Positions 42,451 through 44,876 of a stretch of DNA of 64,000 nt are shown piece by piece. A program made the translations under genes and the position numbers. The stretch's first letter is position 1; each line of letters opens with the position of its first letter. This DNA comes from Leadbetterella sp. (GTDB lineage Bacteria > Bacteroidota > Bacteroidia > Cytophagales > Spirosomataceae), in contig JAHBUH010000001.1 in NCBI GenBank assembly GCA_019638185.1, positions 124,001 through 188,000 of the forward strand, given 5' to 3'. The notes under the pieces are model-generated. The model saw only the letters and a list, made by a program, of their open reading frames with translations, had not been told where the DNA came from and did no database searches.

Positions 42451-43500
42451 TTAAAACTCAGTATTGGGCTGCGGTTCCTGCTGCGAAAGGCAGTGGAAGC
42501 TGCCCAGCCCCCAGATGATCTCGGTAGAATCAATGCCCGTCACCACACGATCTTTGAAGCACTGCTGAAGGATTTCCAGCGCTTTTTCGTCGTTTTTTGA
42601 GCGGTAAGTAGGTACTATCACGTGGCCGTTTGTGATCAGGAAGTTCGCATACGAAGCCGGCAGGCGTAACCCTTCGGAGTACACCGGATCCGGCATCTGG
42701 ATCTCCACGATATTCAGCGGACGGCCGTCGGGCAGTCGCATTTTTTCCAGGAGCTTCCGGTTTTCTTCCAGGATAGCGTGGTTTTCATCGGTTTTATTGG
42801 CTTCCACCATAGTAATAACAGTGTCCTCGTTCACAAATCGCACGGTGTCGTCAATGTGCCCGTCGGTATCATCGCCCACAATACCGTCTTCTACCCACAG
42901 CACCTGCTCCACGCCATAAAAATCACAGAGGTATTTCTCGATCTGCGCCGGAGTGAGGTGGGGGTTCCGGTTTTTATGGAGCAGGCAGGACCGGCTGGTC
43001 AGTACGGTACCTTTTCCGTTAAATTCCACGGAACCGCCTTCCATAACTATACCGGGGCTCACCACAGGCAGGCCCAGGGCACCGGCTATCCGGCGGGGGA
43101 TGGCATTATCGCTGTCAAACGGCGGATATTTACCGCCCCAGGCATTATATTCCCAGTCTACGATCATCCGGGAGTCATTGTGTTTATTAACCAGGAAGGC
43201 CGGACCGTGGTCGCGGCACCAGGAGTCATTGGTAGGAAACGGGTAGAGTTCCACGCGGCTGGTGTCAATGCCGGCTTCGTGGATACGCGTTTCAATGAGT
43301 TGACGGGCGTTTTCATCGGCCACGTTGATTCTCACTTTCTGGCTGAGAGTGATGGTTCTGATCAGCTCAAAGTAGGCCGGCCAGATCCGGGGAAACCGGT
43401 CTTCCCAGGTTTCGGTATTGACAGGAAAGCTTAACCAGGTCGCTACTTGCGGGTGCCATTCGGCAGGAAAATAATAACCGTTTTCGGATGGTTTGATCAT
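42451..43500 (-). CDS. aguA: agmatine deiminase
   Basis: 349 residues, family length. Conserved blocks: SWCRDHGPAFLVNK, WEYNAWGGKYPPFDSDN, EGGSVEFNGKGTVLTSRSCLLHKNRNP, DDTDGHIDDTVRFV, and the C-terminal catalytic Cys in GSFHCLSQQEP. The enzyme converts agmatine to N-carbamoylputrescine, toward putrescine. The Porphyromonas-type peptidyl-arginine deiminase is in the same family, but that is usually longer and secreted. It is divergent from the arginine-related GNAT at 43953 and has a good -33/-7 promoter. Confidence 0.9.
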   Translation of the reverse strand: MIKPSENGYYFPAEWHPQVATWLSFPVNTETWEDRFPRIWPAYFELIRTITLSQKVRINVADENARQLIETRIHEAGIDTSRVELYPFPTNDSWCRDHGPAFLVNKHNDSRMIVDWEYNAWGGKYPPFDSDNAIPRRIAGALGLPVVSPGIVMEGGSVEFNGKGTVLTSRSCLLHKNRNPHLTPAQIEKYLCDFYGVEQVLWVEDGIVGDDTDGHIDDTVRFVNEDTVITMVEANKTDENHAILEENRKLLEKMRLPDGRPLNIVEIQMPDPVYSEGLRLPASYANFLITNGHVIVPTYRSKNDEKALEILQQCFKDRVVTGIDSTEIIWGLGSFHCLSQQEPQPNTEF

Positions 43501-43767: not shown

Positions 43768-43775
43768 TATCTTTG
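43768..43775 (+). promoter_or_regulatory. -7 promoter box for the GNAT leader transcript
   Basis: TATCTTTG matches TAnnTTTG exactly. The expected transcription start is near 43782, only about two bases before the ATG of a short open frame. No clear TTG -33 is seen at 19-21 bases. Confidence 0.5.
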
Positions 43776-43783
43776 TATTGAAA

Positions 43784-43849
43784 ATGGAAAACATCAATCT
43801 CCCCATATCGCCTTTCCGACGACTTAGGTCCGCAAGGACCCAAGCTTGA
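43784..43849 (+). CDS. putative arginine-rich leader peptide (21 codons)
   Basis: A 21-codon frame from ATG 43784 to TGA 43849, starting about two bases after the expected transcription start. Four of seven consecutive codons (12, 13, 15 and 18) encode Arg, as CGA CGA AGG AGG. The frame runs through a GGTCC-GCAA-GGACC hairpin (43827-43840) with a GNRA loop. The leader lies upstream of the arginine-linked GNAT gene, so attenuation by arginyl-tRNA supply is a reasonable guess. A chance open frame cannot be excluded. Confidence 0.45.
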   Translation: MENINLPISPFRRLRSARTQA

Positions 43850-43950
43850 GACACTTTACTGACCAGCAAGGCGTCTCGACCTCTCTATCTTTCACTGATT
43901 TCTTAACAACCAAAACGGATACACCGTCTCCTTTAGGGCTAAGCCCTCAC
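43826..43950 (+). promoter_or_regulatory. structured mRNA leader with alternative hairpins
   Basis: Segment GGTCC (43827-43831) pairs with GGACC (43836-43840) but AGGTC (43826-43830) can also pair with GACCT (43878-43882). GAGAC (43848-43852) can pair with either of two GTCTC copies (43873-43877 and 43926-43930). The stem AGGGC-TAA-GCCCT ends just before the GNAT start. These alternatives are mutually exclusive, as in an attenuator. There is no T-run terminator, so control at translation or by Rho is more likely than by an intrinsic terminator. Confidence 0.4.
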
Positions 43951-43952
43951 AA

Positions 43953-44669
43953 ATGACGATGAACATAGTAGAAAAGAAGACTTACGGGGATTTTGTGGTT
44001 CAGGTGGCCACAGAAGAACATTATGAATATGCGGAGCAGATCTGCGATGAGATGGAAGCCAGCGCCAGGGCGCGGGGCACGGGTATTGCCAAGCGTAAGC
44101 CCGAGTACATCCGGCTGAAGATGTCAGAGGGAAAGGCGGTCATTTGCCTTACCACAGCAGGATCATGGGTGGGTTTTTGTTACATTGAAACCTGGGATCA
44201 CGGGAAGTTTGTGGCTAACTCGGGGCTGATCGTGGCACCGGATTACCGGAAGTCGGGGATAGCCACCTACATTAAGGCCATGGCCTTTAAGCTTTCCCGT
44301 ACCAAATACCCGGAAGCCAAGATCATAGGCCTTACCACCAGCCTGGCGGTGATGAAGATCAATTCGGAGCTGGGTTACCTGCCCGTTCCGTTCTCCGAAC
44401 TGCCTAAAGACGAGGATTTCTGGAAGGGGTGTTCCAGTTGTGTGAATTTTGATATCCTGAACCGGACTAACCGGGCGCACTGCCTGTGTACGGGGATGAA
44501 GTATGAGCCGCCTAAGGAAGAGAAGAAAACCGAGTTCTGGGATTTCATTTCTCAGTCGTCTATCTATGAGAGCTTTATGCGCATGAAGCAGCGGGTATTG
44601 CTGGGCCGGGAGGAAAAAACTAAAAAAAAAGCTCCAGCCCTGGTGAAGCGGGAGATGCAAGAAGCGTAG
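43953..44669 (+). CDS. GNAT acetyltransferase of the Bacteroidota arginine cluster
   Basis: 238 residues. The acetyl-CoA site is NSGLIVAPDYRKSGIATYIK (about 89-108). RGTGIAKRKPEYI and the Cys cluster C160, C163, C177 and C179 (WKGCSSCVNF, HCLCTGM) match the GNAT commonly encoded next to argG in Bacteroidota, a candidate N-acetylglutamate synthase for arginine synthesis. Here no arg gene is adjacent, though agmatine deiminase is divergent upstream. The alternative start is ATG 43959. A basic helical tail (220-238) ends the protein. Confidence 0.8.
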   Translation: MTMNIVEKKTYGDFVVQVATEEHYEYAEQICDEMEASARARGTGIAKRKPEYIRLKMSEGKAVICLTTAGSWVGFCYIETWDHGKFVANSGLIVAPDYRKSGIATYIKAMAFKLSRTKYPEAKIIGLTTSLAVMKINSELGYLPVPFSELPKDEDFWKGCSSCVNFDILNRTNRAHCLCTGMKYEPPKEEKKTEFWDFISQSSIYESFMRMKQRVLLGREEKTKKKAPALVKREMQEA

Positions 44670-44805: not shown

Positions 44806-44876
44806 TGAAACATTTCCGACGGTGCGCCGCCCGACGGTTCGCCGCGCGACGGTTCGCCGCTCGGCTGAAAGTTTCA
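44806..44876. repeat. inverted element enclosing three 15-bp tandem repeats
   Basis: Units CGACGGTGCGCCGCC, CGACGGTTCGCCGCG and CGACGGTTCGCCGCT lie at 44817-44831, 44832-44846 and 44847-44861. They are enclosed by imperfect inverted arms: TGAAAC at 44806-44811 with GTTTCA at 44871-44876, and CCGA with TCGG just inside. The element ends 36 bases before mgsA. It is not a CRISPR array: no spacers separate the units. Confidence 0.65.

What the first reader, a model, noticed from the sequence alone, without database searches (positions are those of the whole stretch)
43768..43952. Arginine-rich leader peptide and alternative hairpins before an arginine-linked GNAT gene
The GNAT typical of Bacteroidota arginine gene clusters is preceded by a leader of about 170 bases. 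It begins with a nearly leaderless 21-codon frame whose codons 12-18 hold four Arg codons (CGA, CGA, AGG, AGG). The same stretch forms GGTCC-GCAA-GGACC, which competes with pairing of AGGTC (43826) to GACCT (43878). GAGAC (43848) can pair with either of two GTCTC copies, and a hairpin AGGGC-TAA-GCCCT lies just before the GNAT start. Together this looks like a ribosome-sensing attenuator for arginine supply, with no intrinsic terminator, so translational or Rho-linked control is more likely. I know of no described element of this kind in the phylum.
Basis: partly seen in the sequence, partly recalled or inferred. Interest (0 to 1): 0.75.

Follow-up and report, generated by a model that had tools for sequence, protein, structure and literature searches.

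The report
Arginine-sensing leader before arginine-synthesis gene
A short arginine-rich reading frame with RNA hairpins sits just before a gene that probably starts arginine synthesis, and similar leaders recur in many relatives, so it looks like a real but untested arginine-supply switch.

Summary
The leader is real. The 21-codon frame (43784-43849, MENINLPISPFRRLRSARTQA) has Arg codons CGA, CGA, AGG, AGG; CGA is the rarest Arg codon in the window's large genes (20 of 629). A model of its two hairpins matches once in this genome and in 89 of 97 GNAT loci of the family. The hairpins covary (96% of cells paired; 48 double-changed cells, 1-10 in slid controls). Within each leader group the frame is under coding constraint (pN/pS 0.26 and 0.62; above 1.3 in the other frames). 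In 83 GNAT loci elsewhere in the phylum, 41 have a short upstream frame with 4 or more Arg in its last 12 residues; shuffles average 2.6 (max 7). In two relatives checked with protein models the GNAT precedes arg genes, so it is probably the first arginine enzyme. Arginine sensing by a leader peptide is thus well supported. A covarying pseudoknot over the GNAT start (CGTC 43925, GACG 43955) is the best candidate output in part of the family; Rho-linked or terminator control stays open. No experiment exists. Leader-peptide control of amino-acid operons is reported for flavobacteria in general terms; ten paper searches showed no arginine case in the phylum.

The parts
43768..43775 (+). putative -7 promoter box TATCTTTG (TAnnTTTG)
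   Evidence: a TAnnTTTG box lies 7-19 bases before the leader ATG in 16 of 28 leaders of this type; consensus recalled
43784..43849 (+). leader frame MENINLPISPFRRLRSARTQA, Arg codons CGA CGA AGG AGG
43827..43840 (+). hairpin P1 GGTCC-GCAA-GGACC over the last Arg codons
   Evidence: covariation, 98.8% of cells paired, 4 of 5 pairs with double changes
43846..43879 (+). hairpin P2, overlaps and follows the stop codon
   Evidence: covariation in the family, 94.0% of cells paired, 5 of 6 pairs with double changes; fold
43880..43916 (+). C-rich, G-poor spacer
   Evidence: C exceeds G in 28 of 28 leaders of this type and 62 of 110 control regions
43917..43931 (+). box GGATACACCGTCTCC: stem S1 (GGA/TCC) with loop strand CGTC (S2)
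43935..43947 (+). hairpin P3 AGGGC-TAA-GCCCT
   Evidence: position kept but sequence variable in relatives by eye; not counted for covariation
43955..43958 (+). GACG, partner of CGTC 43925-43928, next to the GNAT start (pseudoknot strand)
   Evidence: CGTC/GACG 44, TGTC/GACA 11, TGTC/GACG 2 of 57 rows; recovered by an unbiased scan
43953..44669 (+). GNAT gene, probably ArgA2-like; likely start 43959
   Evidence: role inferred from gene order in relatives and PMC9026213, PMC7311316 (passages)

Best explanation
A leader-peptide regulator of arginine supply. Shown by comparison: a translated-looking, Arg-rich leader frame; hairpin P1 on its last Arg codons; hairpin P2 at its stop codon; in part of the family a pseudoknot that ties up the GNAT start. 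Inferred: when charged Arg-tRNA is scarce, the ribosome stalls on CGA CGA AGG AGG, covers the 5' arm of P1 and changes which of the downstream structures form, so that the GNAT (probably the first enzyme of arginine synthesis) is made; when arginine is plentiful the ribosome runs to the stop, is released, P1 and P2 form and the pseudoknot closes the start. A possible link is pairing of the freed P1 3' arm (GGAC 43836-43839) with GTCT 43926-43929, which would break the pseudoknot; this link has no covariation behind it.
For: Arg is the one residue strongly enriched in short frames upstream of this GNAT across the phylum: 41 of 83 loci, shuffles mean 2.6, max 7 of 40 shuffles. Covariation of P1 and P2 in 50 leaders. 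Model R1: one match in the own genome, 89 of 97 family loci, of which 44 of the 52 not used to build it. Coding constraint within both groups. Rare Arg codons. GNAT followed by arg genes in relatives. S2 pairing with double changes in 11 of 57 rows, also found by the unbiased scan. No terminator in the window.
Against: No expression data. Nested folds show no change of start accessibility with ribosome position (0.46, 0.46, 0.46, 0.45). The cross-pairing GGAC/GTCT is kept in 46 of 53, lost in 7, and the parallel control also yields one helix. The pseudoknot box is missing in 33 of 90 rows examined (two of the 33 are from other families). 42 of 83 phylum loci miss the strict Arg criterion. R1 finds nothing in 97 of the 106 loci outside the family that it was given. 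Terminator-like sites occur in 34 of 218 upstream regions against 1-12 in mononucleotide shuffles, so transcription termination may be the output in some relatives. Pooled over both groups pN/pS is 0.59 in frame and 0.84 and 1.65 out of frame.
Confidence: 0.82

Rival explanations
1. The nascent peptide itself is an arrest peptide that senses free arginine or ornithine in the ribosome, rather than the Arg codons sensing charged tRNA.
For: Residues beyond Arg are conserved with synonymous change (HTTPF, L.I[ST]P). P.R occurs in 23 of 37 hand-listed leader peptides against a mean of 9.7, max 19, when the non-Arg residues are permuted.
Against: The peptides differ widely between families while Arg content stays. 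Some leaders lack the Arg after PF (L028, L070, L098, L112). The 37 peptides are related and hand-picked.
Confidence: 0.2
2. The output is Rho-linked termination in the spacer: a ribosome held on the leader, or its absence, decides whether Rho can load.
For: C exceeds G in the spacer in 28 of 28 leaders of this type and in 29 of 29 chosen loci elsewhere in the phylum; 62 of 110 control regions. No intrinsic terminator in the window.
Against: Base skew is not a Rho site; the spacer also fits a need to stay unstructured. The covarying start pseudoknot points to translation.
Confidence: 0.25
3. P2 is an intrinsic terminator or pause hairpin.
For: In L073, L084 and L095 P2 is directly followed by a T run; 34 of 218 regions score as terminator-like against 1-12 in shuffles.
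Against: The window has none; P2 in the family has few G-C pairs; many leaders lack a T run after P2. The shuffles kept single-base content only.
Confidence: 0.12
4. P2 is a binding site for a trans-acting protein.
For: The loop CCTACGTGG recurs in leaders of other Cytophagales families (L162, L182, L184).
Against: The loop is not conserved in the window's own genus; no candidate protein.
Confidence: 0.07
5. The feature is a chance short frame with chance hairpins.
For: Arg-rich short frames and 5-base stems do arise by chance.
Confidence: 0.02

Closest known systems
Leader peptides of amino-acid operons in Flavobacterium psychrophilum (PMC9723704, passages)
   Same: same phylum; [quoted passage not shown]
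   Different: no arginine case in the main-text passages; the supplement, which lists 64 structured leaders, was not available
Bacteroid-trp motif RF01692 (PMC2864571, passages)
   Same: cis-regulatory RNA in Bacteroidetes; recalled as a tryptophan attenuator
   Different: tryptophan; no Rfam match here
rbfL of Staphylococcus aureus (PMC13009471, passages)
   Same: leader peptide with rare Arg codons senses arginine limitation and controls translation
   Different: other phylum; pausing blocks rbf; target is a biofilm regulator, not arginine synthesis
speF leader of Salmonella (PMC6386406, search listing and start of abstract only)
   Same: leader region with alternative RNA conformations that respond to arginine
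   Different: controls an ornithine decarboxylase; no sequence comparison made
trp and his attenuators of enterobacteria (recalled)
   Same: clustered codons of the end product in a short frame, hairpins after it
   Different: those end in an intrinsic terminator; the window has none

Membership tests
ribosome-mediated amino-acid attenuator | short translated frame before the regulated gene | tested here: met
   frame conserved with coding constraint; translation itself not shown
ribosome-mediated amino-acid attenuator | codons of the pathway's end product enriched in the frame | tested here: met
   41 of 83 loci outside the family, shuffles 2.6; rare CGA codons
ribosome-mediated amino-acid attenuator | regulated gene belongs to that pathway | tested here: met
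   L055 and L066: GNAT followed by argG-, argD-, argF- and argB-type genes (several below the curated cut-off); role of this GNAT itself inferred
ribosome-mediated amino-acid attenuator | mutually exclusive RNA structures | tested here: inconclusive
   one cross-pairing, no covariation, not above the parallel control; nested folds show no switch
ribosome-mediated amino-acid attenuator | terminator or start occlusion as output | tested here: inconclusive
   start pseudoknot covaries in 57 of 90 rows that hold the box; no terminator in the window, some in relatives
ribosome-mediated amino-acid attenuator | derepression when the amino acid is scarce | not testable with these tools
   needs experiment
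Bacteroid-trp (RF01692) | match to the covariance model | tested here: not met
   no match to it
ligand-sensing arrest peptide (SpeFL-like) | conserved nascent chain needed for stalling | tested here: inconclusive
   non-Arg residues conserved within the family, not across families
ligand-sensing arrest peptide (SpeFL-like) | response to free ornithine or arginine | not testable with these tools
   needs in vitro stalling assay
Rho-dependent leader | Rho loading and premature 3' ends | not testable with these tools
   only base skew measured

The most novel reading that the evidence does not exclude
A widespread arginine switch of Bacteroidota in which a partly conserved nascent peptide ([ST]P.R, HTTPFR) and rare Arg codons hold the ribosome on P1, and the freed P1 arm opens a pseudoknot that locks the start codon of the first arginine enzyme: translational attenuation in a phylum recalled as not relying on Shine-Dalgarno pairing.
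Probability: 0.22. Interest if true: 0.8.

Novelty: new variant of a known kind. Interest (0 to 1): 0.6.

Why it matters
It would give Bacteroidota a defined arginine sensor at the entry of the pathway, explain how a gene for the first enzyme is tuned even where it has left the arg operon, and offer a compact system to study leader-peptide control with a start-codon pseudoknot.

Tried and rejected
A known Rfam family: none (the only weak hit was SNORD82, E 4.4). A terminator in the window: none. A ribosome-position switch from nested folding: no effect on the start region (that script began one base late, at 43785, which does not touch the region measured). A second leader at argG in the own genome: argG lies elsewhere (C7) and I saw no Arg-rich frame in its short upstream gap by eye. 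The 37 and 34 leader peptides used were listed by hand from earlier outputs, and the 50 rows of alignment A1 were chosen by me from 79 distinct windows. A solved relative of the GNAT: only distant GNAT enzymes, best E 1.5e-06, so its activity was not settled; I did not compare it with BT3761.

Full report
The observation. The frame runs from ATG 43784 to TGA 43847-43849 and reads MENINLPISPFRRLRSARTQA. Upstream lies a TAnnTTTG box, downstream the GNAT gene, and on the other strand an agmatine deiminase-like gene. G101, listed as the same genus as the window, has the same leader as Emticicia sp. CRIBPO (L031 duplicates L010), so the window probably comes from Emticicia or a near relative.

Conservation in the family. 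The GNAT is found in 194 of 200 family genomes. I read the upstream region in 97 of these (30 loci and 67 fetched) and in 38 loci. The leaders fall into two main groups: the window's type (L.I[ST]P.RR..RS.RT, 28 rows) and a Spirosoma-like type (HTTPFR.RS.RT). Model R1, built from 50 of 79 distinct windows, matches 89 of the 97 family loci; 45 of the 97 had gone into the model, and 44 of the other 52 match. The eight misses are L106, L108, L119 and L131-L135; each still shows an Arg-rich frame by eye. In the own genome R1 matches once. In 241 genomes of the order it matches 32, once each: 25 in the family and 7 in other families. Of those 7, five had loci and all five have the GNAT beside the match; two were not checked.

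RNA structure. On A1, P1 and P2 have 96.2% of cells paired, 9 of 11 pairs with a change on both sides and 48 double-changed cells, against 1-10 cells when partners are slid. In L021, L022, L026 and L069 P1 is replaced as a whole by GATAT/ATATC. In six leaders an Arg codon inside P1 has become Trp while the stem is kept (L013, L025, L042, L110, L121, L130), so the stem is selected apart from the peptide. Near the GNAT start, a box GGA-N5-7-CGTC-TCC can form an H-type pseudoknot with GACG before the start codon. In 57 of 90 rows my search pattern found it; the pattern itself fixes GTC and GAC, so only the fourth pair is a free test: CGTC/GACG 44, TGTC/GACA 11, TGTC/GACG (wobble) 2. The double change occurs in Spirosoma and in genera g31 and g7. 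S1 is GGA/TCC in 55 and GGG/CCC in 2. At least one leader is counted twice (L010 and L031). A scan of all column pairs in 53 leaders, with no structure given, returns four helices: P1, P2, S2 and GGAC 43836-43839 with GTCT 43926-43929. The first three have 19, 17 and 10 double-changed cells; the last has none, is kept in 46 of 53, and one helix also appears in the parallel control, so it stays a guess.

Coding. In the ten codons before P1, pN/pS is 0.26 in the Spirosoma-like group (1.45 and 1.80 in the other frames) and 0.62 in the window's group (1.35 and 3.37). Pooled, it is 0.59 against 0.84 and 1.65. These are raw pairwise counts without a tree. In 32 large frames of the window CGA is 20 and AGG 49 of 629 Arg codons.

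The phylum. The GNAT is found in 83 of 198 genomes drawn from the phylum. In 83 upstream regions from these outside the window's family, 41 hold a short frame with at least four Arg in the last 12 residues; 40 sets of dinucleotide shuffles give a mean of 2.6 and a maximum of 7. The next largest excess is Gly, 6 against 0.2; Leu is 8 against 10.7. R1 itself matches none of the 97 (of 106) outside loci it was given, so the sequence and hairpins are not recognisably homologous by this model; what recurs is the Arg-rich frame with folding at its end. In 34 such loci the region around the leader stop folds slightly better than shuffles (mean z -1.19; 27 of 34 below zero, 21 below -1).

The gene. 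Of ten loci whose neighbours I listed, eight have an argG-like gene next to the GNAT by eye and two (L031, L037) do not. Protein models confirm argG, argC, argD, argF and argB types in L055 and argG, argD, argF and argB types in L066, with several scores below the curated cut-offs. A GNAT at this place is called ArgA2, a predicted N-succinylglutamate synthase, in PMC9026213, and BT3761 is given that role with genetic support in PMC7311316 (passages of both). I did not compare the window's GNAT with BT3761; the role is inferred. In the own genome argG lies on another contig.

Mechanism. The sensor half (ribosome, Arg codons, hairpin on them) is well supported by comparison. The output half is open. 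For translation control speaks the covarying start pseudoknot and the lack of a terminator in the window. For Rho speaks the C-over-G spacer (28 of 28, and 29 of 29 chosen loci elsewhere, against 62 of 110 controls). For termination in some relatives speak terminator-like sites in 34 of 218 regions against 1-12 in shuffles. Nested folding with parts masked by a ribosome shows no switch.

Novelty. Ten searches of open papers showed no arginine leader in this phylum. General reports of leader peptides exist for F. psychrophilum (PMC9723704) and B. thetaiotaomicron (PMC7366714; passages). Supplements and subscription papers were not seen. I rate it a new variant of a known kind.

Noticed in passing
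window 44816-44864: Three near-identical GC-rich units (CGACGGTKCGCCG) in a row between the GNAT and the methylglyoxal synthase gene.
   Followed up: no
window 42451-43500: Agmatine deiminase-like gene divergent from the leader; arginine-derived metabolism on both sides of one intergenic region.
   Followed up: no
L080, L086, L102 and other leaders of genus g32: Leader frame, P1 and P2 are kept but the start pseudoknot is missing and another long hairpin seems to take its place.
   Followed up: no
L162, L182, L184: P2 loop CCTACGTGG is shared by several Cytophagales families although the stem differs.
   Followed up: partly
L024 upstream region: Extra sequence inside the leader gives a different Arg-containing frame before a degenerate copy of the usual one.
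   Followed up: no
L104: Leader peptide cut short (HTTPFRFRP) with the stop codon in the P1 loop, while P1 persists as GGCC-GTAA-GGCC.
   Followed up: no
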